This document shows, one piece after another, positions 605 through 26,266 of a DNA stretch of 64,000 nt (position 1 is the stretch's first letter; every line of letters starts with the position of its first letter). The position numbers and the translations under genes were made by a program. The notes beneath the pieces are model-generated. The model saw nothing but the letters and a program-made list of their open reading frames with translations. It had not been told where the DNA came from and made no database searches. Source of the stretch: Clostridia bacterium (GTDB lineage: Bacteria > Bacillota > TC1 > UBA5767); assembly GCA_016887505.1 (NCBI GenBank), contig CP069393.1, positions 186,001-250,000 on the forward strand, written 5' to 3'.

Positions 605-1180
605 TTAAGACAAAAAGTCGTCATCATCGTCTGTTGCGAAATCGGACTCGGCACTAACCTTGCCACCGAGAGGCTCGCCGTCGCGTACCTTCTGCAGGTT
701 GTTCAGACCGCATGCGATGCCCTTGTTGCCGTTGGAATTGAAGGCGTAGAAGCTGATACTAGCTCTGCCATATACGCCGGAGTACACCTCAGAGCGGGTG
801 AGAATCGGATTACGGTCAGCATCCACGACGCCGGGAGCTGTAGCGGAATTGGCGTTGATGAAGTATGCATTGGCGTAGGCCGGATCATCTGGACGCTCGC
901 TGTCGCCATCTCTGAGCGGGGTCTTGATTGCCGCCATCGGGGGCACGGACTTGCCGCTACCTTTGAGCTTTGCTTCTCCCTCATGGTAAGCTGCCTCAAT
1001 AGCGGCCTTGATCTTAGCGACGGTCTTGGTGTCGGACTTAGGGATAATGAGCGAAACAGAGAACTTCGGAGTACCACCGTTGATGCTCTTGGCTTCCCAG
1101 ATGTTTGCATAGCTCCAACGGGTGTCGGGTCCAGTGATAACTTTCATTGGGTTGTTGGCTTTGTTGGTGTTGTTATTCAT
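605..1180 (-). CDS. DUF2815 family phage protein, probable ssDNA-binding protein
   Basis: The 191-residue product matches the DUF2815 family: an early VITGPDTRWSYANIWEAK block, then GTPKFSVSLIIPKSD, a middle YANAYFINANS region, and an acidic tail ending DFATDDDDDFLS. Such acidic tails are typical of single-strand DNA-binding proteins, and the family is generally viewed as the SSB of this kind of element. The start chosen is MNNNTNK, directly after GGAGGAAAACGACT; an in-frame ATG eight codons upstream lacks a ribosome site. It overlaps the end of the DUF2800 gene by 8 bases, showing one transcription unit with the polymerase downstream. Confidence 0.85.
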   Translation of the reverse strand: MNNNTNKANNPMKVITGPDTRWSYANIWEAKSINGGTPKFSVSLIIPKSDTKTVAKIKAAIEAAYHEGEAKLKGSGKSVPPMAAIKTPLRDGDSERPDDPAYANAYFINANSATAPGVVDADRNPILTRSEVYSGVYGRASISFYAFNSNGNKGIACGLNNLQKVRDGEPLGGKVSAESDFATDDDDDFLS

Positions 1181-2312
1181 AGTCGTTTTCCTCCATAAAA
1201 TCATTTTTGGCAGTGTTCATGACCGGACGTTTGTCGCTCTCCAGTACAAGCGTGGGTTTACCTTGTGGCTTTTCAATGTAAGCCGCGAGTAGTTCGTCAA
1301 AGCGGGATTTGCCGAGCAGCTTCTGCATGGCGGTGACGCCGAGGACTTTGTGGTCATATGGGTCAAATCCTGCACTGATAACTGCATCAGCGACAGCTGT
1401 TTCATTGGTGTACTTACGATTGGACCGGCCTTCGACCAGCTTCCAACCGTTCCATTCCTTACCGCTGATAGCCTGCTGCAGGGCGTATTCCTTGATGTCC
1501 GTGGCCCATGCGACAAGGTCATCGACGCGGGTAAGGATTTCTTCGACTTCCTCGTCCGTGAGTAGCGGCGGCAGCTTGAAGTCATAGCGGGCAAGCTCCA
1601 GGTTGGCATCGGCTCTGGCGCGGCAGTCATGCTTTGCCTTGCAGAAACCACACCATTCACCGCAGAGGAAGTTGCCGTCGCCGGCGAAAGCAAGGTCTGC
1701 AGTGGGCTTGAGTACTTCGTCTGCCCAGCGGTAAAGCTCATCTTTTGAGAGCTCGTAGGTGCTGATATTACTTCTTCTGGGTTGATATATGACCATCCTG
1801 ACGAGGTCAATGTCGTAGATTCCGTCGAACAGTTCCAGGGCACCGAGGGCATAACACTGCATTTGCGGATTCTTTTCTGCAATTACAAAAATTCCCATTC
1901 CGTGTTTGTAGTCGCATATCTGCAAGGTGCCGTCCGCAATAATGATGCAGTCTGCTGTTCCGAAGCCGGACTCCACCCATCGAGAAAAGTCCACACGCTG
2001 TTCGATCAAAACGACTGGGTCAGCACATGTCTGCTTGGCTGCTTCTACCTGTTCGAGGATGTAGGCAGTGTAGCCAGAAGCACAGTCGGCCATTTCTTCG
2101 TTGAACCATGTGAGGTTCTCAGTCGGGTCCTTTGCCTCCATGCCCAGCGCCTGACGGAGCTTGTACTCGCAAAGTTCGTGGGCGTCAGTGCCTTCGGCAG
2201 CGTAATTGCTGCCCTTATCGTCGTAGCTTTCACAGAGTCGAGCCGAGGGTGGGCAGCGGAGCCAACGTTCGGAGCTAGATGCGGATAGGAGTGCGTGTCC
2301 TTTAGCTGGCAT
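1173..2312 (-). CDS. DUF2800 family protein, RecB/Cas4-like PD-(D/E)XK nuclease
   Basis: This 379-residue protein opens with the family signature SASSSERWLRCPPSARL. It carries GTADCIIIADG followed by ICDYKHGMG, which give the D and D-x-K residues of a RecB-type PD-(D/E)XK nuclease. A cluster of four cysteines in CGEWCGFCKAKHDC resembles the Fe-S binding part of Cas4/AddB-type nucleases. The start is the ATG at 2312 after TGTGGAGGG. It probably processes DNA ends during replication or recombination of the element, working with the SSB-like and polymerase genes downstream. The family is well known in Firmicutes prophages; its precise activity here is inferred. Confidence 0.85.
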   Translation of the reverse strand: MPAKGHALLSASSSERWLRCPPSARLCESYDDKGSNYAAEGTDAHELCEYKLRQALGMEAKDPTENLTWFNEEMADCASGYTAYILEQVEAAKQTCADPVVLIEQRVDFSRWVESGFGTADCIIIADGTLQICDYKHGMGIFVIAEKNPQMQCYALGALELFDGIYDIDLVRMVIYQPRRSNISTYELSKDELYRWADEVLKPTADLAFAGDGNFLCGEWCGFCKAKHDCRARADANLELARYDFKLPPLLTDEEVEEILTRVDDLVAWATDIKEYALQQAISGKEWNGWKLVEGRSNRKYTNETAVADAVISAGFDPYDHKVLGVTAMQKLLGKSRFDELLAAYIEKPQGKPTLVLESDKRPVMNTAKNDFMEENDYE

Positions 2313-2613
2313 CGTTAAGTCCCTCCACATCTGCAAGCAGGGCCTTGTAGTTGGCCGGGTCAATACCGGACAGCTTGTCGGCACCGTATTTCTGGAGCAG
2401 AGAGCGAATCTGAGCGGTGAAGCCAGAACGGGACTTATCCGCGAGGACTGCTCTGACCGCTTCCAGCGTAATTACCGGTTCGGTGGGTGTAGGTTCTGGC
2501 GTTGGTTCATTGGTGCTGAACTGCTCGGCTAGCCAATTTGCGGCTTCGTTAATAGCTGCAGCTGCGCTGCGTAGTTCTTCGATGGTCATGGCCATGTCGC
2601 TCATTTTGCTCAT
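2302..2613 (-). CDS. Hypothetical phage-element protein, 103 aa
   Basis: The start ATG at 2613 follows a strong AAGGAGGAAAAGCAC site. The protein has an N-terminal helix (IEELRSAAAAINEAANWLAEQ), a Pro/Thr/Glu linker (EPTPEPTPTEP), and a C-terminal helical domain (ITLEAVRAVLADKSR through LLQKYGADKLSGIDP). Proteins of this shape occur regularly beside DUF2800 in Clostridia elements, some under misleading ribosome-biogenesis names. I know no function for them. It overlaps the DUF2800 start by 11 bases, so translation is probably coupled. Confidence 0.7.
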   Translation of the reverse strand: MSKMSDMAMTIEELRSAAAAINEAANWLAEQFSTNEPTPEPTPTEPVITLEAVRAVLADKSRSGFTAQIRSLLQKYGADKLSGIDPANYKALLADVEGLNDAS

Positions 2614-3879: not shown

Positions 3880-4707
3880 GTGATTAAAATCAACTTCTCT
3901 CAGTATTGCAAAAGAATATATCCATATTGTCATCAGATATCTAGCCAAGGTTTGTTTGTGAGCAAGTTGTTTGTAGCTGGTGGGAGTTCGTATTTTTCTA
4001 CCTCGGTTAATACTGACAAGGAATATCAAAAGAAACTGTATAATGGCTCGAAACCGCTGACACAGAATCTTAAGGATTCATTCCCTGCAAATATTCAGCT
4101 GGACGCATTGGTAGGTCTGTTTGAAAAGCACTTAAAAGATGATAAGGTTCGCCAGGCGATGACAGCATCTGCAATACCAGTTTCGCTCGAACCACAGAAA
4201 GGTACTTTTTCTCGAGCTCTTGCTCTTCAATTTAATTACCTTGTAAAGAATGAAGATAGTGACGCCGACGATATCGTGGCTATGGAATACCAAAGGCTTC
4301 TCACTGAGCCTGCCGATGAAAAGCCTCAGTCTTTAGTTCCATTGTATCCTGGTGATGGCGCATATGTTCTTGATTTTCTACCGGCGCGGATTTATTTAAA
4401 AAAGTGTTATGAGCAGTTTGATCACACATGGCTAATTCAAAACACTGGAAATCAGACATGGCGCAGTCGAAAACTTGTTTTTGTTAACCAGGCCTCTGTA
4501 AGGCCAAGAACCGCTAAAAGCTGTATCGATATACCAGATGTACCTCCTGGTAAAGAAATAAAAATAACCACAAGCATTGACACTCGTGGTTTTGAAGGAC
4601 GTTATGAATGTTTGTGGGAGATGCAGGATAACGAAGGCAACAACTGCTTTCCTAATAACAAAAAGCTATTTAACGTTACAATAGATTCTAAGTTCGAAAT
4701 AGAATAG
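3880..4707 (+). CDS. Protein with C-terminal NBR1-type Ig-like domain, upstream of type I R-M genes
   Basis: About 275 residues. The N-terminal half holds a conserved-looking block (YFSTSVNTDKEYQKKLYNGS, then SRALALQFNYLV). Residues about 170-272 fit the NBR1 Ig-like fold: HTWLIQNTGNQTWRSRKL, then VPPGKEIKI, then FEGRYECLWEMQD, with the tryptophans and the VPPG turn in the expected order. There is no signal peptide, so it acts in the cytoplasm. Related proteins sit upstream of restriction genes in other Firmicutes islands, but no role has been shown to my knowledge. The start is unclear: GTG at 3880 overlaps a near-perfect GGAGGTGATT ribosome site, and the best-spaced codons are ATT or ATC. 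Confidence 0.65.
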   Translation: MIKINFSQYCKRIYPYCHQISSQGLFVSKLFVAGGSSYFSTSVNTDKEYQKKLYNGSKPLTQNLKDSFPANIQLDALVGLFEKHLKDDKVRQAMTASAIPVSLEPQKGTFSRALALQFNYLVKNEDSDADDIVAMEYQRLLTEPADEKPQSLVPLYPGDGAYVLDFLPARIYLKKCYEQFDHTWLIQNTGNQTWRSRKLVFVNQASVRPRTAKSCIDIPDVPPGKEIKITTSIDTRGFEGRYECLWEMQDNEGNNCFPNNKKLFNVTIDSKFEIE

Positions 4708-5032: not shown

Positions 5033-7183
5033 ATGGCAAAAGCAAAAAAAGAAGTAAAAGATCAGCCTGTCGAGCAAGCGCTTTGGGCTGCTGCGGACAA
5101 GCTACGTAAAAATATGGATGCCGCGGAATACAAGCATATAGTTCTTGGTCTAATATTCCTTAAATACATTTCGGATAACTTTTATGAGCTATACCACAAA
5201 CTGGAGGCGGGTGAAGGCGATTATGCTGGAGCTGATCCGGATGACCCTTATGAGTACCGTGCTGAGAATGTTTTCTATGTACCACCTCAGGCTCGGTGGG
5301 ACTACCTGCGTGGAAGGGCAAAACTCGCCACCATCGGTAAAGACATAGACGATGCAATGGACTCAATCGAGAAAGACAATCCATCTTTACAGGGTGTCCT
5401 CCCGAAGGAGTACGCGAAAGAAAAGCTAGATAAACAGTCACTCGGTGGACTTATCGACATAATTAGCACAATTGCCCTTGGAGATTCTCTGTCTCGCTCT
5501 AATGATGTACTTGGAACAGTATATGAGTATTTTCTTGGTCAATTTGCACTTGCGGAAGGCAAAAAAGGCGGGCAATTTTATACGCCACGCTGCCTTGTTC
5601 AACTACTCGTAGAAATGCTTGAGCCGTACGAGGGTCGCGTACTTGATCCATGTTGCGGATCTGGCGGTATGTTTGTGCAAAGTGAGAAATTTATTGAAGC
5701 CCATGCTGACCACTACAACGGTAAAGCAAAGGAAATTGTCAAGCTGTTTGAAAGCGTTGTTTCAGTTTATGGTCAAGAAAGCAATCAGACTACTTGGCGA
5801 CTATGTAAAATGAACCTCGCGATGCGTGGAATCGATAGTTCCAATGTGAAATGGAATAACGAGGGATCTTTCTTGAATGATGTACATCAAGATTTGCGTT
5901 CAGATTTTATAATTACCAATCCACCATTCAACGATAGTGACTGGAGTGGAGAATTATTGAGTGGTGACTACCGCTGGAAATACGGCACACCGCCAGCATC
6001 AAATGCAAATTATGCTTGGATTCAGCACTTTATTTCTCACCTTTCACCAAAAGGTAAGGCGGGGTTTCTTTTAGCGACCAAGGCTCTGGCATCCGAATCT
6101 GCTGCTGAGAAAACTATCCGTTCAGGAATCGTCAGAGAAGATTTAGTTGAGTGTATCGTCCTGTTGCCAGGCAAGTTATTCTATACAACCCCAGCTCCTG
6201 TTTCTCTATGGGTATTATCAAGAGGCAAATCGAAAACTCGCCGCAAGGATGAAACTCTTTTCATCGACGCGTCAAAAATGTTTATAGATCTCGATCGAAC
6301 GCATAGGACACTTGATGCAAAAATAATTAGTGGCATTTGCGAAACGTACCATTCATGGCTCTATCAAGAGAACGAGTATGAAGATATACCAGGTTACTGC
6401 CGTTCAGTTCATCAGAGTGAAATTTGTGACAGTGATTATTCACTATATCCAGGTCAATACATCGGTATTGGTGTTGAAGAAACCGATATCAAGCCAAAAG
6501 AACAGTCTCTCGCAATTACAAAAGGAGCGGCTGCTGAAATCAGTGGCAAGATGGAGACGATTAATCAAAACATTAACCACTTGATGAATGAGATACAAGT
6601 AGAACTAAACAAACCAACAACGGCTCTTATAAAATACAAACTTTCCGATGTCCTGGAAGAGTCAACAGCAACACTTGGTAATTCTGAAGAGCCAGAAATA
6701 CTATCAATAACTGAAAATGCAGGGTTAGTCCTGCAGAGGGAGCGTTTCTCAAAGCGTGTTGCAACTGAAGACACAAGCTCGTATAAGATCGTAAAGAAAA
6801 CTGACATTGTTTATAATCCTTATCTTCTTTGGGCAGGCGCAATAGATCAATGCTGGGTTGTAGATCTAGGTATAACCTCTCCAGCTTATGTCGTCTTGTC
6901 AGTTAAACAAAAATTTGAACCGTTCCTTATAGGTCATGTTATCAAAAGTGACCTTATGAAGAAATGGTACTGGAATATTTCCATTGGAACACATGAACGT
7001 AGACGAACGGCTCCAGTGGATAGATTTCTTAATCTTGATATTGAATTGCCAGATGAAGCTACTCAAAAACGTCTTTCTGCTTTATATGAGGAGTTACTTT
7101 CCCAAAAAACATTACTCCAAGATACCATAAAGTCTATTGATGTTTTGTCGAGTGGATTAGGTGAATTCTATACTGGCTTATAG
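5033..7183 (+). CDS. hsdM: Type I DNA methyltransferase HsdM fused to a single HsdS target-recognition domain
   Basis: 716 residues, longer than a typical 500-residue HsdM. The order is an HsdM N-terminal helical domain (LWAAADKLRKNMDAAEYKHI), GGQFYTP before the catalytic core, SAM motif I DPCCGSGGMF (D205), and N6-adenine motif NPPF (N296). From about residue 535 there is one HsdS-type TRD (KLSDVLEES, YKIVKKTDIVYNPYLLW, ITSPAYVV) followed by a helical conserved region. No separate hsdS is nearby. With half a specificity subunit per chain, two chains should pair and read a symmetric split target; that is inference. hsdR follows 11 bases downstream. ATG follows AGATGAGGAGAAAAGA. Confidence 0.9.
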   Translation: MAKAKKEVKDQPVEQALWAAADKLRKNMDAAEYKHIVLGLIFLKYISDNFYELYHKLEAGEGDYAGADPDDPYEYRAENVFYVPPQARWDYLRGRAKLATIGKDIDDAMDSIEKDNPSLQGVLPKEYAKEKLDKQSLGGLIDIISTIALGDSLSRSNDVLGTVYEYFLGQFALAEGKKGGQFYTPRCLVQLLVEMLEPYEGRVLDPCCGSGGMFVQSEKFIEAHADHYNGKAKEIVKLFESVVSVYGQESNQTTWRLCKMNLAMRGIDSSNVKWNNEGSFLNDVHQDLRSDFIITNPPFNDSDWSGELLSGDYRWKYGTPPASNANYAWIQHFISHLSPKGKAGFLLATKALASESAAEKTIRSGIVREDLVECIVLLPGKLFYTTPAPVSLWVLSRGKSKTRRKDETLFIDASKMFIDLDRTHRTLDAKIISGICETYHSWLYQENEYEDIPGYCRSVHQSEICDSDYSLYPGQYIGIGVEETDIKPKEQSLAITKGAAAEISGKMETINQNINHLMNEIQVELNKPTTALIKYKLSDVLEESTATLGNSEEPEILSITENAGLVLQRERFSKRVATEDTSSYKIVKKTDIVYNPYLLWAGAIDQCWVVDLGITSPAYVVLSVKQKFEPFLIGHVIKSDLMKKWYWNISIGTHERRRTAPVDRFLNLDIELPDEATQKRLSALYEELLSQKTLLQDTIKSIDVLSSGLGEFYTGL

Positions 7184-7194
7184 GGGGTATTGAA

Positions 7195-10100
7195 ATGGCT
7201 AAACTGTGTGAATCCGCAGTAGAGGAAATGGCTATCGAGGAATTGCGAAACCTCGGTTATACCTATTTGTCTGGTGTTGACCTCGCACCTGACGTTCTGA
7301 ATTCCGAGCGAAATAGCTATGGAGATGTTCTACTAATGGGGCGATTACAAGCAGCTATGTCCAAGCTGAACCCGAGTATACCTGCCGATGTAATTCATGG
7401 AGCTGCTCGAAAACTGTCAAGGATAGCCACTTCAAATATGCTCACCGATAATGAGGAATTCCACCTTATGCTCTTAAATGGTGTCTCCGTTGAATATCGT
7501 AAGAATGGTGACATCAAAGGTGATTTTGTACATGTACTAGACTTCGAGAATCCGCTGAACAATGAGTTCCTTGTAATCAATCAATATACCATTGTCCAAA
7601 ATAATAACAACAAACGCCCTGATATACTACTGTTCATAAACGGTATCCCGCTAGTTATATTTGAGCTAAAGAATCCTGCTGACGAGAATGCAACTTGTCA
7701 CAAAGCATATGATCAGTTACAGGCGTATAAGCAAGCGATTCCAGGGCTTTTCACCTACAATGAAATCTGCATTATTTCCGATGGATTGGAGGCAAAGGCG
7801 GGGTCACTGACCGCGTCTTATTCTCGTTTTAGTGCATGGAAAACGAAAGACGGCATAAAAGAAGCTACCAAATTTGAAGATGAACTTACCACGCTGATTC
7901 ATGGACTTTGCGCACCCGCGACGTTGATTGACTACATACAAAGTTTTGTGACCTACGAAAAGACACAGATCGAAGACAAAAATACGCACATTGTCAAGGT
8001 GGAAACTGTAAAAAAAATTGCGGCTTACCACCAATATTACGCGGTGAATAAGGCAGTGGAGCAGACAATCCGGGCTAGTGGATACTCCACCACTTCCAGC
8101 TTGGTGATTCATGAAGACCCAGAAAGTTTCGGTCTGCCCTCCGCTAAAAACCAACCAAAAGGTGACCATAAAGCTGGCGTGGTTTGGCATACACAAGGAG
8201 CTGGAAAGTCACTTTCGATGGTATTCTATACAGGTAAAATCGTTCGCGCTTTGCATAACCCAACAATTTTGGTTATCAATGATCGTAATGATCTGGATGA
8301 TCAGCTGTTTGATACTTTCGCAGGCAACAGTGAACTTTTGCGCCAACCGCCGAAACAGGCGGATTCCTGCGAGGATTTAAAAACCCTGTTGAAGGTCGCG
8401 TCTGGAGGTATCGTTTTTACGACCATACAGAAGTTTATTCCCGATAATAATGCATCGGTATATGAACTGCTGTCTGCTCGCGAAAACATCGTAGTAATCG
8501 CTGACGAAGCACATCGTACCCAGTATGGTTTCAATGCTAAACTCCGCGACATCAAGGAAAACGGCGAAGTGGTAGGACAACGGATTGCTTACGGTTTCGC
8601 GAAATATATACGTGATGCGCTTCCAAATGCCACTTTTATTGGATTCACAGGAACACCTGTTGAGAAACAGGATGCAAACACACCAGCTGTCTTCGGCAAT
8701 TATATTGACATCTACGATATCGCTCAGGCAGTAGCGGACAATGTAACCGTTCGTATCTTCTATGAAAGCCGACTTGCAAAGGTGAACCTTACTGAAGAAG
8801 GCAAACGACTTGTGGAGCAGTTCGACGCGGAACTGGACGAAGTTGGCGAAGCTGATGAAGCCACTGCGGCCAAAATCAAGTGGGCGAAGTTAGAAGCCAT
8901 CGTCGGTAATGAAGATAGAATCCGAATCCTTGCTAATGACATAGTGACTCATTTCGAGGAGAGACAGGAAGTATTCGAAGGAAAAGCCTTGGTTGTCGCG
9001 ATGAGTCGCCGTATTGCAGTTACTTTGTACGATGCAATAATCAAATTACGTCCCGAATGGCATAGTGACGATTTAGATAAAGGCGTTATCAAAGTTGTAA
9101 TGACTTCGAGCAGTTCAGACGGTGCTGCTATTCAGAAGCATCATACTACCAAGGCACAGCGTAAAGCTCTCGCTCTTCGTTTAAAGGATGAGAACGACCC
9201 TTTGAAAATTGTCATCGTTCGTGACATGTGGCTTACGGGTTTTGATGTTCCATGCCTAAATACGATGTATATAGATAAGCCAATGAAAGACCACAGCCTC
9301 ATGCAAGCAATCGCTCGTGTCAACCGCGTGTTCAAGGATAAACCTGGTGGTCTGATTGTAGACTACATTGGTATCGCGACAAATTTGAAAAAGGCACTCG
9401 GCTTTTATGCAGAAAGCGGTGGCAAAGGTGTGCCAGCTGAAACTCATCAAAGAGCTGTGGAGATTATGCTCGAGAAATTGGAAGTTGTGCGCGGGATACT
9501 TCATGGTTTTGATTATTCAACGTTTTTCTCCAGTGCAGTCAGGGATAAGCTATCTCTAATACTGAAAGCGGAGGACTTCATCCTAGGTGTGGACGAGGGT
9601 AAAAACCGCTATGTACGTGAAGTTTCACTGTTAGGACAAGCATATGCTCTCGCTAAGCCTGACCCCGCCACCTTTGAAAATGCTGAGGAGATAGCGTTTT
9701 TCCAAGCGCTCAAGGCTCGGCTTACGAAATTTGAGACAAGTGATAATGGCAAAGATGAGAGTTACGATTCCGTCATACGGAACATTGTAAACTCTGCTAT
9801 TGCCTCTGACCAAGTAGTTGATATCTTCAGCGCAGCGGGCCTTGAGAAGCCTGAACTCTCTATTCTTTCGGAAGAATTTTTGAAAGAGATTGAGGGAATG
9901 AAATATAAGAATGTTGCTATTGAACTACTGAAAAAACTATTATCCGACGAAATTAAAATTCGGTCCAAGCATAACCTCGCCAAATCAAAAACATTAATGG
10001 AAATGCTCGATGGAGCATTAAAAAGGTATCAGAATAATCTTTTGACCACTGCAGAAATAATCGAAGAACTCATTCGCATAGCTCGTGAAATTAATGCTTC

Positions 10101-10413
10101 TGATAAGCGAGGTCAGGATTTGGGGCTTTCAGAGGATGAACTTGCTTTCTTCGACGCACTTGAAACCAACAACAGCGCGGTCAAAGTTCTAGGTGACGAC
10201 CAACTAAGGGAAATTGCAAGGGAAATAGCTGATAAAGTCAGAAAGAATGCTACGATCGACTTCGCAATTAAGGAAACAGCCCGTGCTCGCATTATGGTCA
10301 TTGTTCGAAGGATTCTTAACAAACATGGATATCCGCCGGATAAACAGCCCGCTGCAATAGAACTTGTAATGAAGCAAGCAGAGAATCTGGCTGAAGTTTG
10401 GACAGCTCAATAA
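7195..10413 (+). CDS. hsdR: Type I restriction enzyme subunit R
   Basis: 1072 residues, normal for HsdR. The N-terminal nuclease domain shows RPDILLFINGIPLVIFELKN, giving the D143, E157 and K159 catalytic set. The helicase part has Walker A QGAGKS (K338), DEAH (437-440), the GFTGTPVE motif III, and a C-terminal HsdR helical domain. It cleaves unmodified DNA by ATP-driven translocation, in complex with the fused methylase-specificity protein just upstream. ATG follows a GGGGGTATTGAA site, and the gap of 11 bases indicates co-transcription. It belongs to a different HsdR lineage from the copy at 21990 in this window, although both keep the same catalytic spacing. Confidence 0.93.
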   Translation: MAKLCESAVEEMAIEELRNLGYTYLSGVDLAPDVLNSERNSYGDVLLMGRLQAAMSKLNPSIPADVIHGAARKLSRIATSNMLTDNEEFHLMLLNGVSVEYRKNGDIKGDFVHVLDFENPLNNEFLVINQYTIVQNNNNKRPDILLFINGIPLVIFELKNPADENATCHKAYDQLQAYKQAIPGLFTYNEICIISDGLEAKAGSLTASYSRFSAWKTKDGIKEATKFEDELTTLIHGLCAPATLIDYIQSFVTYEKTQIEDKNTHIVKVETVKKIAAYHQYYAVNKAVEQTIRASGYSTTSSLVIHEDPESFGLPSAKNQPKGDHKAGVVWHTQGAGKSLSMVFYTGKIVRALHNPTILVINDRNDLDDQLFDTFAGNSELLRQPPKQADSCEDLKTLLKVASGGIVFTTIQKFIPDNNASVYELLSARENIVVIADEAHRTQYGFNAKLRDIKENGEVVGQRIAYGFAKYIRDALPNATFIGFTGTPVEKQDANTPAVFGNYIDIYDIAQAVADNVTVRIFYESRLAKVNLTEEGKRLVEQFDAELDEVGEADEATAAKIKWAKLEAIVGNEDRIRILANDIVTHFEERQEVFEGKALVVAMSRRIAVTLYDAIIKLRPEWHSDDLDKGVIKVVMTSSSSDGAAIQKHHTTKAQRKALALRLKDENDPLKIVIVRDMWLTGFDVPCLNTMYIDKPMKDHSLMQAIARVNRVFKDKPGGLIVDYIGIATNLKKALGFYAESGGKGVPAETHQRAVEIMLEKLEVVRGILHGFDYSTFFSSAVRDKLSLILKAEDFILGVDEGKNRYVREVSLLGQAYALAKPDPATFENAEEIAFFQALKARLTKFETSDNGKDESYDSVIRNIVNSAIASDQVVDIFSAAGLEKPELSILSEEFLKEIEGMKYKNVAIELLKKLLSDEIKIRSKHNLAKSKTLMEMLDGALKRYQNNLLTTAEIIEELIRIAREINASDKRGQDLGLSEDELAFFDALETNNSAVKVLGDDQLREIAREIADKVRKNATIDFAIKETARARIMVIVRRILNKHGYPPDKQPAAIELVMKQAENLAEVWTAQ

Positions 10414-10431: not shown

Positions 10432-11919
10432 ATGTCATTATTTATCTCGTACAATAGAGAACAAAAAGACTTTGCGGATAAGATAGAGTCCTCCGTCCGA
10501 ACAGTTTGCACTGTCCTGCGTGATACAAATGACATTGCTCCGTGGGCTAGTATTGAGGAATTCATGAATCGGATTCGCCAAGCGAAGTATGCCGTACTTC
10601 TAATATCAGACGAATATTTAAAGTCAATCAACTGTATGTATGAAGCCTGCCAGTTATACAAGGATGTTAACTGGAAATCTCGCACTATGTATGTTGTGCT
10701 TGGGAATGCTGACCTAAATATCTACACTGTAGCGAACCACGAAAGATATATCCGATTTTGGAAGGATAAAAAAACAATTCTTGAAGAACAGATTAAGAAC
10801 TTGCCGGCAGAAAGCATAGACAGCATTACGGCAGAAATTAAACGAGTAAGCGAAATTCTCCTTATGCTCGGTGATTTACTGAAAATTATACGTGACACAA
10901 ACAATATGCAACCAGAAAACACGATAGACGAAATCATTAGCTTTATTACAACTAAATCCGTTCCAAAGGAAGCGAATTTAGGGGAACATTCTCGCGCTAC
11001 ATCGAGTGTGCTGGATAAGACTCTGGTTGATGCCGGGTTTGACGGTGTCTTCTCTGAGGTGCTTCATAGCGAAAAACTGGGGTTGATAAATCCCTACCAG
11101 TTGCGCTTGTTTCAACTGAGCGTGGTTGACAATGCGTTCTCTTTCGATGCCCTAAAAAAGTTTCTATTAAAAAACATAGGACAGTACATCTATTCTCGTG
11201 AACGTATAAAAAAGTACATCGACGACGAGGAGATAATGCTGATTGGGCTTAAAGCTGTTGAGCTTATGAAAGAACGTAGCAATGGAGATTGCAGTTGGCT
11301 GGGTGATGAACTTGGTGATTTAATGTTGTATGTCTTTTTAGAAGGGATACTTAAAGCTCCAAAAGTGTTCAGTAAATTTGATGCTCCCTCTGACGGAGTG
11401 TTGACGACCGGCACAAGCGGCGTTCATTTACTAAAACCCGACGCAGAAGTGCCCTCTTTTCAGATGGTGTTTGGCAAGTCAAGCATTGTGGGCGATCCGA
11501 AAGACTCGATCGACAACGCCTTTGTCACGCTTGAAGCGATTAAAAATGACAGATCTCGAGAAATGCGACTTGTTGAATCCACAGCATTTGATAAAGAATT
11601 TACACCGGAAGTGGCAGAATATCTTAAAAATATTATTCTGCCAAGCAAGGAGAAACGCGTCAGCCATGATACGGCTTTCGGTGTGTTCCTCGGATACTCG
11701 CTTGGCTTAGATGCTGATAAATATACATCAGCTGAGTTTGCTATAAATCTTGAAAGTAAAATGAAACTCGATATCAAAAGCCACGTTTCTTATATAGTTG
11801 ACAAAATCAAAGCGGCAAAAATGGAGCGCTATTCGTTTTACTTCTACTTTCTGCCACTCAACGATGCAGACGGAGAAAAGCAAAGCATCATGCAGTCGAT
11901 TTTAAGAGGAGGGGTGTAG
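10432..11919 (+). CDS. TIR domain fused to a HamA (DUF1837) domain, Hachiman-like effector
   Basis: 495 residues. Residues 1-150 are a bacterial TIR domain: LFISYNREQKDFADKIE at the start and SDEYLKSINCMYE, matching the S-x-x-Y-x-x-S-x-x-C-x-x-E consensus, with E71 the expected NAD-cleaving glutamate. A linker leads to about residues 200-495, which resemble HamA/DUF1837 (WLGDELGDLMLYVFLEGIL, KAPKVFSK, SGVHLLKPD, then the region around 343-355). HamA nucleases carry G-E-x-K at this last site; here it reads FGKSSIVGD, so the acidic residue and following Lys appear lost. It lies one base before hamB and 18 after hsdR. Hachiman HamA/HamB form an antiphage complex; the TIR part as substitute effector is inferred. 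Confidence 0.75.
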   Translation: MSLFISYNREQKDFADKIESSVRTVCTVLRDTNDIAPWASIEEFMNRIRQAKYAVLLISDEYLKSINCMYEACQLYKDVNWKSRTMYVVLGNADLNIYTVANHERYIRFWKDKKTILEEQIKNLPAESIDSITAEIKRVSEILLMLGDLLKIIRDTNNMQPENTIDEIISFITTKSVPKEANLGEHSRATSSVLDKTLVDAGFDGVFSEVLHSEKLGLINPYQLRLFQLSVVDNAFSFDALKKFLLKNIGQYIYSRERIKKYIDDEEIMLIGLKAVELMKERSNGDCSWLGDELGDLMLYVFLEGILKAPKVFSKFDAPSDGVLTTGTSGVHLLKPDAEVPSFQMVFGKSSIVGDPKDSIDNAFVTLEAIKNDRSREMRLVESTAFDKEFTPEVAEYLKNIILPSKEKRVSHDTAFGVFLGYSLGLDADKYTSAEFAINLESKMKLDIKSHVSYIVDKIKAAKMERYSFYFYFLPLNDADGEKQSIMQSILRGGV

Positions 11920-11920
11920 A

Positions 11921-14548
11921 ATGGCCGATAACCCTGGCATCAGTTTAGGTGATGTCATTTTTGCAGGAATTGACAACAACCCCTACCTCAACGAGTTGTA
12001 CGACAATATTTTACATAATTATGCTCTCTCATTGTTCGGAATTACAAATAAAGAGCCTAAACCGGTCGATGTTGCCGATGCGCTCCAATTTGCCGATGTG
12101 TTATCCAAGTCCACTGATGAAGATAATTTGGACAGGCATAAGATTTGGGCACAGGAAATTGTTGCTTTATTGAAAGCCATGTATCCTGATAATCCCGTAG
12201 TTTTAGACTATTTTGGAACAGTGCTTTTAAGTACAGAAAATTATCTTGGACTTGCAAAAAACGTCCCGGGCTTTTGTGGTCGTACTCTGCTTGACAGGTT
12301 TTATACGGAATTTAGCATGGAGTTTTTAAGCATACCTGCTGAACAGGATAAACAATTCTTTCGTTCGCAAAAGGAAGTCTACGATCGTCTAACTGAACCT
12401 TACTTCAGTTATTCAGGCCCCACCTCGATGGGTAAATCCTATATAATGCGCATGTTCATCAAAAAACAGGTTATGGATGGCACAAAAATGAACTTCGCTG
12501 TTATTGTCCCAACTAAGGCTTTAATTAACGAAGTTTATAGCAAAATCATCGAAGATCTGAAAATAGATGATATAACAGGATATCTTTCCGAACGGAATTA
12601 TACGATTATTACCTCAGCAGGAGCGTTGCAGCTAAACAAGGAGCATCAAAACTTCATCTTTGTTTTAACCCCTGAGCGGTTGCTATATTTACTGATAAGC
12701 CACCCTAATATAAAGATTGATTATCTGTTCATTGATGAGGCACATAAAATCTCAGCGAAAGACAGCCGGAGTGCTTTTTATTATAAAGTTGTGGATATGC
12801 TCGATAAGAAGCAAAAACCACATATTATATTTGCTTCACCGAACATTCCCAACCCAGAAGTATATTTGGGATTGATTCCAAATGCCGAATTGAAAGCAGA
12901 TCAGAAATTATCTACCTCCTTCTCTCCAGTGAGCCAAATAAAAACACTAATTGATATGATCGGTGGAGAGGTACAGACATTTAACTCTTACACTGAGCGA
13001 CTCGAAGATGTGTTTGATTTCAAAAAAGGATTCGTCCTCGGGCAAATAATCAATCTCATAAATAGCAAAGGTAACGGCGGTAAGGCTCAGAGCATCGTAT
13101 ATTTTAATTCGAAGGAAAAAGCAGTAGAGTATGCCCTGGATTTTGCAAAGACGCAGCCAGAACAAGATGACCCTGCTCTTATCACATTGGCAAACGAGAT
13201 CAAGAACGTGATCCATGGGGAATACTATCTCGCTAAAATTATAACAAAAGGCGTGGCTTACCATATTGGTTACCTACCTGCTGCCATCCGCTTGCGGATT
13301 GAAGAGTTATACCGCGAGCGTAAAATTCGGACACTCTTTTGCACTAGCACATTGCTTGAGGGTGTAAATCTTCCTGCTGATAATCTTTTCATCACGACTT
13401 ATGGAAAAGGACGCGGAAGGTCAAAGATGAAAGCCGTAGACTTCAAAAACCTCATAGGGCGTGTTGGGCGAATTGAATATAATTTATACGGTAATGTATT
13501 TCTCGTAAGGCTTGAAGGCAATACGAAAACCGAAGATTTTGTGAAATTGTTAAAAGAAAAAGTTCCAGAACAAGAACTTTCGCTCGTATCAGAGCTGGAT
13601 GAAAGCCAGAAAAAACAGGTGGTTGACTGTCTACTTGAAGGTGATATTACTCTCGAAAATCTAAAAACGAAGACGAAGGAGTCATATAAGATTATCCGAA
13701 AATTTGCTGTTATTCTGCTAAGGGATATAACCAATAACAATCACAGTGTTGTCCACCAAGCATTTGAGGCTTACTTGGAAGGTGATGTTAAAGTTCGAAT
13801 TAGAGAAGTGTTTAGGAAAACTGGCAGTGAACCGGACGATGACATAAATGTATCTGTTGACCAAACGAAAAGTCTATATTGGGCAATAAAGAATGATGAA
13901 CTTTGCTATCCTGCTTTAAATTCCGATCGAACAGTTGATTACGATGATTTAATGAATTTCCTGACAAGGTTAAGTCAGGTATTCAATTGGAATAAATATG
14001 AAAGCGATACCATCGGAAATGATAAACGCTTGAAATGGTATGGGGTAATTTTGCGTCGGTGGATTAATGGTCATGGTTTGAGTTTTATTATGAGTGAATC
14101 CATCGATTATTACAGACGGCATCCAGAGAAGAAGGTTTCGATCAACAACCGTCCGGAAATATATAATGGATCTGCGAAACATAAGAACAGCGTTATCGGT
14201 GAGACTTTGGAAGCTATTGAGCATGTTGTTTTATTTAGTCTGGCGAATTATTTCTTGAAGTTCACTGAAGCGTACAAGCGTTATCACAACATTCAGGGAG
14301 ATATGAAAAACGACTGGTATGAATACGTAGAGTATGGAACGACCAGACCATTAACGATTTTCCTTCAGCGAAACGGTTTCTCCCGTGAAACAGCGATGTA
14401 TATTCGTGAACACGTGGACGAATATGTAGTAGATTTGGATATTGAAAATCCGAAACTTCGACGAAGTATAAGAAACTGCAAGAGTGCAAGTGTCAGGAAG
14501 GAAGTTGAGAGTATGCTCTACAACATTCCCGATCTGTTTGTGGATTGA
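11921..14548 (+). CDS. hamB: HamB-like SF2 DEAH helicase, partner of the TIR-HamA protein
   Basis: 875 residues with a Ski2-like helicase core: Walker A GPTSMGKSY (K172), DEAH (272-275), TSTLLEGVNLPADNLF as motif V, and GRVGR (513-517) as motif VI. A long N-terminal helical region precedes the core and a roughly 340-residue C-terminal domain follows, as in HamB. In Hachiman the helicase senses damaged or phage DNA and releases HamA activity. The ATG comes after AAGAGGAGGGGTGTAGA inside the end of the upstream gene, so the pair is translationally coupled. Assignment rests on the partner gene as well as on the helicase, since SF2 helicases alone are not specific. Confidence 0.8.
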   Translation: MADNPGISLGDVIFAGIDNNPYLNELYDNILHNYALSLFGITNKEPKPVDVADALQFADVLSKSTDEDNLDRHKIWAQEIVALLKAMYPDNPVVLDYFGTVLLSTENYLGLAKNVPGFCGRTLLDRFYTEFSMEFLSIPAEQDKQFFRSQKEVYDRLTEPYFSYSGPTSMGKSYIMRMFIKKQVMDGTKMNFAVIVPTKALINEVYSKIIEDLKIDDITGYLSERNYTIITSAGALQLNKEHQNFIFVLTPERLLYLLISHPNIKIDYLFIDEAHKISAKDSRSAFYYKVVDMLDKKQKPHIIFASPNIPNPEVYLGLIPNAELKADQKLSTSFSPVSQIKTLIDMIGGEVQTFNSYTERLEDVFDFKKGFVLGQIINLINSKGNGGKAQSIVYFNSKEKAVEYALDFAKTQPEQDDPALITLANEIKNVIHGEYYLAKIITKGVAYHIGYLPAAIRLRIEELYRERKIRTLFCTSTLLEGVNLPADNLFITTYGKGRGRSKMKAVDFKNLIGRVGRIEYNLYGNVFLVRLEGNTKTEDFVKLLKEKVPEQELSLVSELDESQKKQVVDCLLEGDITLENLKTKTKESYKIIRKFAVILLRDITNNNHSVVHQAFEAYLEGDVKVRIREVFRKTGSEPDDDINVSVDQTKSLYWAIKNDELCYPALNSDRTVDYDDLMNFLTRLSQVFNWNKYESDTIGNDKRLKWYGVILRRWINGHGLSFIMSESIDYYRRHPEKKVSINNRPEIYNGSAKHKNSVIGETLEAIEHVVLFSLANYFLKFTEAYKRYHNIQGDMKNDWYEYVEYGTTRPLTIFLQRNGFSRETAMYIREHVDEYVVDLDIENPKLRRSIRNCKSASVRKEVESMLYNIPDLFVD

Positions 14549-14583
14549 TATTGTCAAGAGAAATACTAAACAGGAGGCGCAAT

Positions 14584-15477
14584 ATGGCCACAAGAGGGAA
14601 AAGTATAAATCTTTATTTAATGGACGGTGAGCCAGTCGGACGCATTAAATGCACACTTGCCAACTGGACTGGTGTGGCCTATAAGATCCCACGCACTGCT
14701 TTAGATCTTTGTAAAGAGCGAGATGATTTGAAGCAAAGCGGCATCTACTTTCTTTTTGGCACATCCGACCAAACAGGTAATAATATCGTCTATGTCGGTC
14801 AAGCAGGCGCACGCAAAAATGGCGAGGGTCTGCTATACCGCTTGCAGGAACATAAACGCAACCCAAATAAGGATTACTGGACGGAAGCCGTTCTCTTTAC
14901 AACCTCCAATAACTCCTTCGGACCAACGGAGATAAGCTATCTTGAAAATCGTTTCTGTGGACTTGCGCTTGCGGCGAAGCGATATGATGTCAGGAACGGA
15001 AACGACCCGACACAAGGTAACATCACAGAGGAAAAAGAAAGCGAGCTTGAAGAATTTGTCGAATACGCCCGCATTGTTATGGGGACGCTTGGACATAAAG
15101 TCTTCGAGCCGCTTGCGGCGCATTCTGCCACTGCATCAGATGATGCTGACGCACACATCGTTATTGCCGACGAGCCGCTGCTCCAGTTTGACAGACCCGC
15201 AGGAAAAGCCATGGGTCATCGCACGAGTGAAGGGTTTGTTGTCCTTAAGGGCAGTGTTCTATCTATCAAGTTACAACGCAGTTGCCCGGAGAACGCTCGA
15301 AAGTTCCGCATGAAATATTCAGATAAGATTGATGCAAACGGCATCTTGATCGAGGATGCTCTTTTAACCAGTCCTTCGGCGGCGGCGGCTTTCGTTGGTG
15401 GTTCCAGCCTCAGCGGAAACATCACATGGAAAACCGCTGATGGCAGAACGCTTAAGGATATCGAGAGCAAGGAGTGA
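14584..15477 (+). CDS. GIY-YIG nuclease with C-terminal DUF4357 domain (copy 1)
   Basis: 297 residues. The nuclease domain shows GIYFLFGTSDQTG, IVYVGQAG, then LLYRLQEHK and SFGPTEISYLENRF, which supply the Y, Y, R, E and N residues of an active GIY-YIG site. The C-terminal part (SEGFVVLKGS, then LTSPSAAAAFVGG and ITWKTADGRTLKDIE) is DUF4357, a domain often joined to nucleases in R-M settings. The start MATRGKS follows AACAGGAGGCGCAAT; a start 13 codons upstream lies inside the previous gene's end and has no site. It ends 8 bases before the helicase at 15486. A close paralogue is at 27567. Confidence 0.88.
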   Translation: MATRGKSINLYLMDGEPVGRIKCTLANWTGVAYKIPRTALDLCKERDDLKQSGIYFLFGTSDQTGNNIVYVGQAGARKNGEGLLYRLQEHKRNPNKDYWTEAVLFTTSNNSFGPTEISYLENRFCGLALAAKRYDVRNGNDPTQGNITEEKESELEEFVEYARIVMGTLGHKVFEPLAAHSATASDDADAHIVIADEPLLQFDRPAGKAMGHRTSEGFVVLKGSVLSIKLQRSCPENARKFRMKYSDKIDANGILIEDALLTSPSAAAAFVGGSSLSGNITWKTADGRTLKDIESKE

Positions 15478-18377: not shown

Positions 18378-18771
18378 ATAACAATCGACTAGTTATCAAG
18401 AACGCAAGGTTAAAAATCGGCTCAAAACATAAGTGCCGTCCTCTTAAATCATTATTTACCTATTCGCGCGAAGTGATAAATAGAGAAATACATACCCGGT
18501 ATCAATCTGTAGTTATGGTTCCAACCGGTTTTAGAAACTGATATAACCTTTCAATTTTGCCTACACTATTTAATTATTCACCATAGCTACATTTTTGCAG
18601 GGTATGCAGCAAGTGGGCACCAGCCCCAACTGACCATTAAACGATATTTGTATAAGTATAAAAAGCTCTCTGAGGGTTGACAAAATCCTCCGAAGCCCTT
18701 TGTTTTAAGCCTTTTTCAGCACATATGTGCCGGATAAGGCTTTTTCTTTTTGTATCAAAATCAGCAGGAAC
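18378..18771. other. Non-coding junction between the helicase gene and the truncated hsdM
   Basis: No frame of any quality is seen on either strand. The stretch contains an imperfect hairpin around 18667-18696 and a clear terminator at 18707-18751, then 20 bases leading into the broken end of hsdM. It most likely marks where the defence module was joined to an older type I locus. The missing hsdM 5' end is not found here in any frame. Confidence 0.5.
18707..18751 (+). terminator. Intrinsic terminator after the helicase gene
   Basis: AAGCCTT (18707-18713) pairs with AAGGCTT (18736-18742). The inner part contains the perfect 12-base palindrome GCACATATGTGC (18719-18730), and a T-rich run follows. 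It would stop the 3.9-18.4 kb transcript before the truncated hsdM. Confidence 0.7.
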
Positions 18772-20730
18772 ATAGATCCGACGAGTGGGTCAGGTAGCTT
18801 GCTGATAAATATCGGTCGAAGTGTTGCTAAGCACATAGATGATGACGATAACATCAAATACTATGCTCAAGAGCTCAAGCAAAATACATATAACCTAACT
18901 CGTATGAATATAATAATGCGTGGTATTCTACCGTCTAACATCACGACTCGCAACGGCGATACCTTAGAGGACGATTGGCCGTATTTTGAAAATAGTGATC
19001 CGGTTGGCACGTATAACCCCTTGTATGTAGATGCGGTTGTTTCCAATCCACCGTATTCGCAAAATTGGGATCCAGAAGGCAAAGAAACTGACCCGCGTTA
19101 TGCTCGTTTTGGCCTGGCGCCAAAAGGTAAAGCTGATTACGCTTTTCTACTACACGACCTATATCATATCAAGCCTGATGGCATCATGACCATTGTTCTT
19201 CCACACGGTGTTTTATTTCGTGGTGGTGAAGAGGGTACAATCCGTAAGAATCTGATTGAGAACAACCACATCGATGTCATTATTGGGTTGCCTGTCAATA
19301 TATTCTTTGGTACGGGCATACCAACCATCATCATGGTGCTTAAGCAAAAGCGTGAAAATACTGATGTGCTAATTATCGATGCATCTAAGGGTTTTGTAAA
19401 AGTTGGAAAAAATAATATACTTCAGGCTTCAGACATCAAACGAATTGCAGATACGGTAGCAGCACGTAAAGATGTGTCGAAGTTTTCTCGTGTGGTCTCT
19501 CGAAGTGAGATTCGCAGTAATGAATACAATCTCAACATCCCACGTTACGTTGATTCTTCCGAAGCTCCTGAAAGCTGGGATATTTATGCCTCCATGTTCG
19601 GAGGTATACCTAAAAAGGAAATTGAAGAACTTTCTGACTTTTGGCAGACTTTTCCTGAGCTGAAGACAGATTTGTTTATTAGGGACACTGGTGAGCATGT
19701 AGATGTTGCTGAGGGTAATCTCAAGGATATCATCAAAAATCATCCGAATGTAGTCTCTTTCAAAGAACACTTTGCGAGGGCTTTCGAAGGTTTTGATGTT
19801 GAGTTGTACACCCATCTTATAGAGGGGATGGAGACTTTAAATATTTCCAAGGAAGAAACTGTACTTAGCGATGAAATTTTCAGTCGTTTAGCATCTGTGC
19901 CACTAGTTGATGAATACAAGGCATACCAGCTCCTAAATGATGAGTGGGTCAAGATAGCTGTTGACTTGGAAATGATTCAAACAGAAGGCTTCGAAGCTAC
20001 TAAGCAAGTTGAACCTAACATGGTCTCAAAGAAAAAGAATGGCAAAGATGTCGAAGTTCAAGAAGGTTGGCAAGGTAGAATTATACCATTTGATTTAGTT
20101 CAAGGAGCGCTACTTCACAAGGAAACAGTAGCTTTAAAAGCAAAAGAAGAACGCCTTATACAGGTAAATTCTTTGCAACAAGAAATCTTTGATTCGCTCA
20201 CGGAAGAAGAAAAGGAAGATTTGAACGATGTTCTAAATGACGATAACACTGCATTTCTGACAAGTTCAGTGAGTAAAGTGGCTAAAGCGCTACTTAAAGA
20301 GCTACTTAAAGAGCATGCTGCGGAATACTACGCAGACGATAGCCCAGAGGGTAAGCTTCTTGCCATGAAGAGCTTGCTCGACGAAGAAAAGGCTCTAAAG
20401 AAAGATATTAAGACTGATTCCACAAAGCTGCACTTACTCACTAAAGAAACCATTGAAAACTTGCTAGATGAACAAGTCTATTCTTTACTGGAATTGAAAT
20501 GGATCACTCCACTGATGTCAGAATTACAACAGATGCCGGCAGCTATTCTCGATGACCTTGCAGTGAAGGTACAGGCGCTTGCGGATAAATATTCTATTAC
20601 CCTTTCTGATGTGGAAGAAGAAATAATTGAAACAGAAGGAATGCTCGCGTCCATGCTGGAACAGCTCACTGCCAGCGAAGTGGACATTAAGGGGCTGACT
20701 GAACTAAAAAAACTGTTGGGAGGTGAGTGA
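18772..20730 (+). pseudogene. hsdM: Type I methyltransferase HsdM, 5'-truncated (second system)
   Basis: The frame matches HsdM from SAM motif I onward: IDPTSGSGSLLINIG at the very start, SNPPYSQNW as the N6-adenine motif, GIMTIVLPHGVLFRGG, and a long helical C-terminus. The whole N-terminal domain and the QFYTP block (about 200 residues) are missing. The frame technically stays open upstream to a GTG at 18727, but that codon sits inside a terminator hairpin and encodes no HsdM-like sequence. Without motif X and the N-terminal domain the product should not methylate. hsdS starts 2 bases after the stop, as in an intact operon. An assembly error at 18772 is the main alternative. Confidence 0.8.
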
Positions 20731-20731
20731 A

Positions 20732-21973: not shown

Positions 21974-21989
21974 GAAAGGAGTGTGAACT

Positions 21990-24900: not shown

Positions 24901-25133
24901 TTCAAAAATTGGTAAACCTTATGAATGTCGATATTCAAGAAGCGAATATCAATGAATATGGTAGGTTTGATGATCTGAAGAAAACTGTAGACAGAGATAA
25001 AGCAAGAGCTTATTTCGAAGCATTAGAAGGTACAAGTATAACAGCATTACGCCTGAGCATAAAAATTGAAAAGCTACTCAAAGACTTTATCCTCAGGGGA
25101 GGTTTTGATATCGACGAGCCTGAAAACAAATAA
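21990..25133 (+). CDS. hsdR: Type I restriction enzyme subunit R (second system)
   Basis: 1047 residues. The nuclease domain gives RRGDLMLLINGMPVIHLELK (D143, E157, K159). The helicase has TTGSGKT (K301), DEAH (from D406), FFGFTGTPI and a later QMLTGFDSKWVNTLYMDK block typical of HsdR. GTG start at 21990 follows AAGGAGTGTGAACT. It lies between the expressed hsdS and the silent hsdS cassettes, inside the region bounded by inverted repeats. DNA inversion could therefore reverse the gene and cut it off from the upstream promoter. Its stop codon abuts the stop of the oppositely oriented silent cassette with no gap. The gene itself looks intact although its hsdM partner is broken. Confidence 0.92.
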   Translation: MIFKTEAEFEAAMIAALQNKGWENQVLKYPTEDTLLKNWADILFENNRGIDRLNDAPLTDTEMQQILEQILALRSPIKLNGFINGKTVSIIRDNPNDPLHLGKEVSLKIYDRREIAAGQSRYQIAQQPRFKSKSKILNDRRGDLMLLINGMPVIHLELKKSGIHVSQAYNQIEKYSDEGIFTGIFSLVQIFVAMQPEETVYFANPGQDGVFNKDFYFHWADFNNEPINSWKDIATYLLSIPMAHQMIGFYTVADDSDGVLKVMRSYQYFAANAISDRVSKIDWSEKHLLGGYIWHTTGSGKTMTSFKSAQLIANSKDADKVIFLMDRIELGTQSLREYRAFAEDHEDVQATEDTHALIAKLKSKNPADTLIVTSIQKMSNIKDEEGGLNSADIVVMNSKRIVFIVDEAHRSTFGDMLITVKQTFPGAVFFGFTGTPIQKENQKKKNTTSTVFGDELHRYSIADGIRDKNVLGFDPYKVLTYKDIDIRRAVALMKANATKEEDAIKDSEKAKKYYYYMDTAKVKMAGHRDKSGKYVQGIEDYLPREQYECVKHRKKVIRDIVDNWMRLSHASKFHAIFATSSIAEAIEYYRLIKELKSNLKITALFDPNIDNNGGVKFKEDGLVEILEDYNERFEQDFTLATHGKFKKDIAARLAHKKPYERIERTPEKQIDLLIVVDQMLTGFDSKWVNTLYMDKVLKFENIIQAFSRTNRLFGPDKPFGTIRYYRYPSTMERNINEAVALYSGNKPLGLFVEHLDYNLEKMNQIFTDISCLYALAGITDFSHLPDDLDNCSRFAKLFSSLNEFMEAAKIQGFTWKQQNYPFENPKKVIEMTFDENTYLILALRYKELLTGGGGGSGSDIPFDIDSNLIAIDTGRIDTNYMNSRFDKYLKVLRQDDIDNDQLQATLDELHKSFATLTQEEQKYANIFIHDVQSGNVELEDGKFFRDYITEYQFCAKKEQVHQVANALGIDIQKLVNLMNVDIQEANINEYGRFDDLKKTVDRDKARAYFEALEGTSITALRLSIKIEKLLKDFILRGGFDIDEPENK

Positions 25134-25191
25134 CTAAATATGAATATTTGGTGAGAAAGAGTCAAACAGGTCTTGGCTCTTTTCTTTTTGC

Positions 25192-25659: not shown

Positions 25660-25664
25660 TTGTT

Positions 25665-26239: not shown

Positions 26240-26266
26240 ACTTCTGCAAAGAAGGAGGTAAGCAGT

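What the first reader, a model, noticed from the sequence alone, without database searches (positions are those of the whole stretch)
10432..14548. Hachiman-like pair in which HamA is fused to a TIR domain
The first gene joins a TIR domain (catalytic-type E71 in a full S-x-x-Y-x-x-S-x-x-C-x-x-E motif) to a DUF1837/HamA domain, and a HamB-type helicase follows one base later. Known Hachiman uses HamA as a nuclease released by HamB. A TIR fusion suggests the same DNA sensor can drive NAD depletion or cyclic nucleotide signalling instead. I do not know this architecture as a described system.
Basis: partly seen in the sequence, partly recalled or inferred. Interest (0 to 1): 0.85.

Follow-up and report, generated by a model that had tools for sequence, protein, structure and literature searches.

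The report
TIR domain fused to dead HamA
A prophage carries a Hachiman-like gene pair in which the DNA-cutting half (HamA) has lost its cutting residues and bears a TIR domain instead, so the DNA-sensing helicase probably triggers an NAD-destroying or signalling enzyme rather than a nuclease.

Summary
The fusion is real. Window 10432-11919 encodes a TIR domain (residues 4-112, Glu71 present) joined to a HamA domain; a full-length HamB with intact ATPase motifs starts one base later. One correction: HamA's catalytic D-GExK motif is gone (D to S329, E to K349, K to S351), and E and K are gone in 79 of 83 examined members of its clade, 76 of them without TIR. So the TIR joined an already dead HamA. 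In my surveys TIR-dHamA occurs only here and in Syntrophomonas zehnderi; close unfused relatives lack just the TIR segment.

Unfused dead HamAs nearly always have a separate partner gene upstream (helical domain + NBR1-type FW Ig domain; window 3880-4707). Elsewhere a related helical domain is fused to dHamA and the gene is absent. R-M genes usually lie in the same run of genes, often beside phage replication genes. The window's locus adjoins terminase, portal, head and tail genes.

Most likely HamB senses phage or damaged DNA, dHamA is the tether and TIR the effector (NAD depletion more likely than signalling); no biochemistry was possible. Dead HamA with another fused effector is published (AbpA, protease-HamA); I found no TIR version in the texts I could search. 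New variant of a known kind.

The parts
10432..11919 (+). TIR-dHamA gene, 495 aa
   Evidence: ORF; Pfam TIR_2 + HamA; PADLOC HamA
10441..10767 (+). TIR domain, residues 4-112; expected catalytic Glu71 is codon 10642-10644
   Evidence: TIR_2 E 3.5e-11; Glu71 lines up with a Glu of Cat1 in a non-significant alignment (E 0.14); dN/dS 0.045 against L011
11149..11859 (+). HamA (DUF1837) domain, residues 240-476 by Pfam, catalytically degenerate: S329 (11416-11418) for D, K349 (11476-11478) for E, S351 (11482-11484) for K
   Evidence: column check against intact HamAs; residue numbers from alignment A2; model matches 8zue_A Z 15.8 and 8vx9_A Z 12.6
11921..14548 (+). HamB, Ski2/Hel308-like helicase, 875 aa; GPTSMGKS at residue 166, DEAH at residue 272, GRVGR at residue 513
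   Evidence: PADLOC HamB 1095 bits; best solved relative 9wh1_B, 262 bits over 13-829; motifs
3880..4707 (+). partner ('adFW') gene: helical N-terminal domain of unknown family + NBR1-type FW Ig domain
   Evidence: PF16158 E 9.6e-10; model pLDDT 90, Ig part Z 12.5 to ILRUN FW domain 6vhi and Z 11.3 to NBR1 4ole; such a gene in 37 of 88 loci, none of them with the helical fusion
5033..10413 (+). type I R-M cassette between partner gene and TIR-dHamA: hsdM with a specificity-like C-terminal part (5033-7183) and hsdR (7195-10413)
   Evidence: PADLOC MTase_I, Specificity_I (residues 540-706) and REase_I; R-M genes in this slot in 29 of 37 loci that have a separate partner gene
605..2384 (-). prophage replication genes beside the run: Gp2.5-like ssDNA-binding protein (605-1204) and exonuclease (1173-2384)
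   Evidence: phrog_112 E 2.6e-71 and phrog_69 E 2.2e-134

Best explanation
A prophage-borne, nuclease-free derivative of Hachiman with a TIR effector. HamB patrols DNA and is activated by phage- or damage-derived DNA (single strands, ends, possibly ends made by the neighbouring restriction enzyme). The HamA domain no longer cuts DNA; it is the tether that holds the TIR in the HamB complex and, on activation, releases or clusters it. The TIR then degrades NAD+ and stops or kills the infected cell, a last resort behind the R-M genes next to it. Shown here: the fusion, loss of the nuclease motif, intact HamB motifs, the TIR Glu and its selective constraint, gene order, prophage neighbourhood. Inferred: dHamA-HamB binding, the trigger, TIR clustering, NAD loss, abortive outcome, coupling to R-M.
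For: TIR_2 and HamA both above Pfam cut-offs. D, E and K all replaced, while 16 of 96 HamAs examined keep all three. HamA fold kept in the model and sequence constrained (dN/dS 0.099), so the dead domain still has a role. HamB scores 1095 bits; 74 of 74 HamBs over 700 aa keep a (G/A)PTSxGKS-type Walker A and a DEAH-like box (41 by pattern, 33 read by eye from the printed stretches). Within the fusion the TIR changes least in protein sequence (93% identity; HamA domain 76%). Published passages: HamAB senses DNA damage; AbpA and protease-HamA put another effector on a dead HamA, and the protease version is proposed to work by HamA-driven oligomerisation (PMC12278908, PMC12799240). L003/L004 DNA matches the window on both sides of the TIR segment but lacks it.
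Against: No biochemistry. The TIR part of the structure model is unusable (pLDDT mostly under 50; only two distinct TIR sequences in the alignment) and no solved TIR matches significantly (best E 0.14). Only two distinct loci carry the fusion. dHamA systems without TIR are the rule in the clade, so the core may have another output and the TIR may be an extra. TIR dS (0.77) is lower than HamA-domain dS (1.65), so part of the TIR similarity may reflect a more recent exchange rather than constraint.
Confidence: 0.6

Rival explanations
1. The real output is common to all dHamA systems (through the FW partner protein or the R-M enzymes); the TIR is only a self-association module or an extra.
For: Dead HamA without TIR is the rule: 76 of the 79 rows that lost E and K have no TIR, and no TIR was recognised in 37 viral-contig loci. 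The window keeps the separate partner gene. Partner gene and fused helical domain exclude each other: 0 of 16 fused loci with at least 6.5 kb upstream have the gene, against 32 of 36 other degenerate loci with at least 7 kb (3 TIR rows included).
Against: The SxxYxxSxxCxxE motif with Glu is kept and the TIR changes less than the HamA domain, more than a mere spacer would need.
Confidence: 0.2
2. TIR is a signalling enzyme: HamB activation makes it produce a cyclic ADP-ribose-type messenger that acts on an effector elsewhere in the cell.
For: TIR domains of some defence systems do this (Thoeris, recalled). The Glu71 motif fits both kinds of TIR.
Against: I recognised no messenger-receptor effector among the genes listed around the pair, but most of them were not searched against a profile library.
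Confidence: 0.13
3. The HamA domain is still a nuclease with rearranged active-site residues, and TIR is a second effector.
For: Fold and much of the sequence are conserved.
Against: All three named catalytic residues are changed, and in the clade E and K are replaced by several different residues, as expected when a site is no longer constrained.
Confidence: 0.04

Closest known systems
Hachiman (HamA nuclease + HamB helicase; E. coli HamAB, 8vx9)
   Same: Adjacent HamA (DUF1837) and HamB genes; HamA fold (8vx9_A Z 12.6, rmsd 4.3, 225 aligned); intact HamB motifs.
   Different: D-GExK motif lost; N-terminal TIR; stands behind R-M genes in a prophage, with an FW partner gene.
AbpAB (8zue)
   Same: N-terminal effector domain on a catalytically inactive HamA domain, with a Ski2-like helicase; 8zue_A is the best fold match of the HamA part (Z 15.8, rmsd 4.3, 257 aligned).
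   Different: AbpA carries a Cap4-like nuclease (passage of PMC12278908), here a TIR.
Protease-HamA systems (HamMAB; PMC12799240, passages only)
   Same: Another effector on a HamA that lost D-GExK; HamB senses DNA; HamA-driven oligomerisation proposed. The paper says that other kinds of HamA fusion exist; its supplement could not be read, so TIR may be among them.
   Different: Trypsin-like protease that activates a separate nuclease (HamM); the HamA protein here has no protease match, and I recognised no HamM-like gene beside it (not searched for by profile).
PADLOC HamA family PDLC00164 (490 aa)
   Same: Helical domain + HamA, from the same dead HamA clade, fused at the same place.
   Different: The fused domain is helical and has no Pfam match in the three scanned, not TIR.

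Membership tests
Hachiman | HamA (DUF1837) gene next to a HamB helicase gene | tested here: met
Hachiman | HamA nuclease motif D-GExK | tested here: not met
   S329/K349/S351 in place of D/E/K; hence Hachiman-derived, not filed as Hachiman proper
Hachiman | HamB ATPase/helicase motifs | tested here: met
   GPTSMGKS, DEAH, GRVGR
Hachiman | HamA-HamB complex that restrains the effector until DNA damage is sensed | not testable with these tools
   no complex prediction or assay available
AbpAB | inactive HamA domain with an N-terminal effector domain | tested here: met
   (that the TIR is an effector is inferred)
AbpAB | N-terminal Cap4-like nuclease | tested here: not met
   the only N-terminal Pfam match at E up to 1 is TIR_2
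TIR domain with catalytic Glu | profile match above the curated cut-off, and Glu in SxxYxxSxxCxxE | tested here: met
   TIR_2 44.1 bits, cut-off 28; E71
TIR domain with catalytic Glu | TIR fold in a structure model | tested here: inconclusive
   residues 1-98 have pLDDT mostly under 50
TIR domain with catalytic Glu | NAD+ cleavage | not testable with these tools
   needs an assay

The most novel reading that the evidence does not exclude
These loci are a distinct, often phage-borne system: HamB and a nuclease-dead HamA serve as a DNA-state sensor wired to an exchangeable R-M cassette (type I, type III or LlaJI-like) and to a partner module (a separate helical-FW protein, a helical domain fused to dHamA, or, in addition, TIR). 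Restriction would be the first line, and HamB detection of its products or of its failure would fire the partner module. The TIR-dHamA version is the one whose output can be recognised, as NAD loss.
Probability: 0.4. Interest if true: 0.78.

Novelty: new variant of a known kind. Interest (0 to 1): 0.6.

Why it matters
It suggests that HamB/HamA can be kept as a sensor and tether while the killing domain is exchanged, with the gain of TIR visible at DNA level against close relatives without it. It also points to many loci that would be called Hachiman (the few scanned match PADLOC's HamA models) although their HamA cannot be a standard nuclease, with a recurrent FW-domain partner and an R-M cassette. 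That makes the open question 'why keep a dead HamA?', raised for AbpA in PMC12278908, directly testable.

Tried and rejected
Rejected: 'active HamA nuclease plus TIR' (motif lost). Rejected: 'broad TIR-HamA family': TIR only in the window and S. zehnderi among 88 loci; none recognised in 37 viral-contig loci (N-termini read by eye, not profile-scanned); none in the PF08878 survey, where 16 of the 31 fetched loci L092-L122 had their HamA ORF printed, 14 others have open frames of only 277-337 aa, and L117 (440 aa) was not read. L011 and L012 are 100% identical over 12,867 bases at two contig ends of one assembly and count as one locus.

Led nowhere: TIR-only searches (plasmids: one distant hit, beside a NACHT gene; viral contigs: none; 393 genomes: two weak hits besides the window). 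Structure of the TIR part. Fold of the partner's N-terminal domain: in 27 members Pfam gave no match there shared by several members, PHROGs nothing convincing, fold searches did not test it (filled by the Ig part) or were uninformative. By eye it recalls an XRE-type helix-turn-helix, and a bacterial HTH-XRE + FW protein is known (passages of PMC9582228), but no test here supports HTH; a weak match to one LmuA model (7 of 27 members, best E 2.4e-4) is the only other lead. PDB search with the protease-like HamA of L116: no hit. No TIR-HamA paper in the held library; supplements could not be read, PMC11914072 is not held. A search for the FW domain name with restriction and phage gave nothing to the point.

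Weak points. The R-M enrichment uses HMMs trained on the case loci, 8 kb against 10 kb flanks and related sequences, so its Fisher p-value (2e-8) overstates. Dropped before the motif count: 5 of 88 loci with HamA ORFs under 250 aa (L029, L062, L088, L089, L090). Rows are not independent: 96 rows hold 88 different sequences, and some loci were fetched twice (for example L144/L145 = L003/L004). The tree is a quick search with SH-aLRT only and long branches among the 13 distant rows. E/K state needs at least two changes on it, because three intact rows (L031, L034, L081) lie inside the clade. K is kept in one viral-contig locus that lost E (L175). Prophage ends were not determined.
Full report
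Observation. The first has a TIR_2 match at residues 4-112 and a HamA match at 240-476, both above Pfam's cut-offs. The second is a HamB by PADLOC (1095 bits); its nearest solved relative by sequence is 9wh1_B, and that of the HamA part is 9wh1_A, filed as 'Anti-bacteriophage protein A/HamA C-terminal domain'. One base separates the genes. Glu71 sits in SxxYxxSxxCxxE and aligns with a Glu of the CRISPR-associated TIR Cat1 in a non-significant alignment (E 0.14; that Cat1 is an NADase is recalled).

The HamA domain is dead. Published HamA uses D-GExK, and the double mutant E138A,K140A of E. coli HamA abolished defence (passages of PMC12278908 and PMC12799240). I aligned 96 HamA domains: 83 from the 88 loci of this survey (5 with ORFs under 250 aa dropped) and 13 from the PF08878 search. 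16 of 96 keep D, E and K; 79 lost both E and K; one (L116, whose N-terminus I read as trypsin-like) lost D only. The window reads S, K, S. Cross-table: TIR 3 of 3 rows lost (2 distinct loci); helical-domain fusion 26 of 26 lost; plain HamA with a separate partner gene 33 of 33 lost; plain without a visible partner gene 18 not intact, 16 intact. In 37 viral-contig loci none is intact: E is lost in 37 and K in 36 (L175 keeps K; two of these loci repeat L003/L004). The HamA fold is nevertheless kept in the model (8zue_A Z 15.8, rmsd 4.3, 257 aligned; 8vx9_A Z 12.6, rmsd 4.3, 225 aligned).

TIR is a late, precise gain. L003 and L004 match the window DNA over hsdR (about 79%) and again from 11017 or 11009 through most of hamB (70-71%), with nothing in between, where the window has its TIR and linker. 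Their HamA proteins have 309 and 307 aa. In the tree, the window and L011/L012 group with SH-aLRT 92 and join L003/L004 with 100, inside a 13-row set (97) of which every row lost E and K. Window and S. zehnderi TIRs are 93% identical (dS 0.77, dN 0.034), HamA domains 76% (dS 1.65, dN 0.164), hsdR 90% (dS 3.41, saturated); the lower TIR dS may mean a more recent exchange of that segment. S. zehnderi's HamB is only 57-59% identical to the window's but 75% to that of L062, and DNA similarity ends just inside hamB: a recombination point.

Survey. Genome contigs: 94 relatives, best 80 kept; with L003-L007, L009, L010 and the window, 88 loci were examined. TIR: window, L011, L012 only. Plasmids: 10 records matched; no place covers both the TIR and the HamA part; three were inspected. 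Phage records: two, one plain and one with the helical domain. Class of the window: 1 of 10 genomes, its own. Phylum sample: 5 of 398 genomes with the whole protein as query, one of them by its TIR part only; PF08878 in 13 of 398 and, in the class of G245, 18 of 398.

Setting. In 37 of 88 loci a separate gene with a helical N-terminal domain and an FW (NBR1-type) Ig domain lies upstream; in 26 a helical domain that clusters with it is fused to dHamA instead; no locus shows both. Of degenerate loci without the helical fusion and with at least 7 kb upstream, 32 of 36 have the gene (TIR rows included; exceptions L038, L060, L061, L071); of helical fusions with at least 6.5 kb upstream, 0 of 16 do. 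In the viral set 15 of 15 without an N-terminal extension have it and 0 of 22 with one (122-217 aa) do, though some of these 22 have little upstream sequence. Between this gene and dHamA lie type I R-M genes in 16, type III in 13 and nothing in 8 of 37 loci; other loci have LlaJI-like R-M genes. R-M was found near 40 of 43 degenerate loci (45 loci of at least 15 kb, less two intact ones) and near 3 of 17 other HamA loci (biased, see Tried and rejected). Phage replication genes stand near 20 of 45 against 0 of 17. The window's own run follows a Gp2.5-like SSB and an exonuclease gene, and the adjoining 33 kb of the genome hold portal, terminase, major head, tape measure, integrase, primase-helicase and DNA polymerase genes.

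Mechanism. HamB keeps its ATPase motifs (74 of 74), HamA is dead but constrained, and within the fusion the TIR changes least. With AbpA and protease-HamA as precedents of effector-on-dead-HamA, the economical reading is sensor (HamB), tether (dHamA), effector (TIR). I favour NAD depletion because I recognised no messenger receptor nearby, but this is inference. Why unfused dHamA systems persist is not explained; the FW partner is the prime suspect. A back-up suicide response tied to an R-M locus would have a precedent in PrrC (recalled).

Novelty. Membership in Hachiman fails on the nuclease motif, in AbpAB on the Cap4 domain; it may work like both. No text with TIR-HamA was found in the held library; in the main text of PMC12799240 the passages found mention other HamA fusions without naming TIR, and both TIR occurrences are in the reference list. 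Hence a new variant of a known kind, with a wider and bolder reading (an R-M-coupled dHamAB system) left open.

Noticed in passing
window 20723-27193: A second type I R-M locus with hsdS (20723-21973), hsdR (21990-25133), hsdS-like pieces on both strands (25134-25613 -, 25734-26261 +), inverted repeats (21265-21299 / 25193-25227, 97%) and a tyrosine recombinase (26267-27193): looks like an invertible, phase-variable hsdS.
   Followed up: partly
window 18727-20730: The hsdM of the second R-M locus aligns only from profile position 216 on; its N-terminal part seems missing or in another frame.
   Followed up: no
window 14545-15477 and 27567-28469: Two similar genes; the first has a DUF4357 C-terminus, matches PADLOC candidate PDC-S14, looks GIY-YIG-like by eye and directly follows HamB; relatives occur in 12 of the 88 loci.
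   Followed up: partly
window 3880-4707; L056, L079, L154 and others: A helical domain occurs either with an FW Ig domain in its own gene or fused to dHamA, never seen as both in one locus: a fusion/fission pair that hints at interaction. Seven of 27 members weakly match one LmuA (Lamassu) model.
   Followed up: partly
L031, L034, L081: Three close relatives keep an intact D-E-K motif. L031 and L034 have no partner gene within 8 kb upstream, and L031 no R-M hit; L081 has almost no upstream sequence. They may show the state before nuclease loss.
   Followed up: partly
window 605-2384 and neighbours of several related loci: The prophages that carry these genes encode a Gp2.5-like SSB and an exonuclease next door. 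Phage SSB is a reported trigger of AbpAB (title and start of abstract of PMC10732053), so how the prophage avoids firing its own system on induction is unexplained.
   Followed up: no
L091 3431-4636: A Segatella copri plasmid gene next to a NACHT-domain gene shares a weak TIR-region similarity (28% identity) with the window TIR.
   Followed up: no
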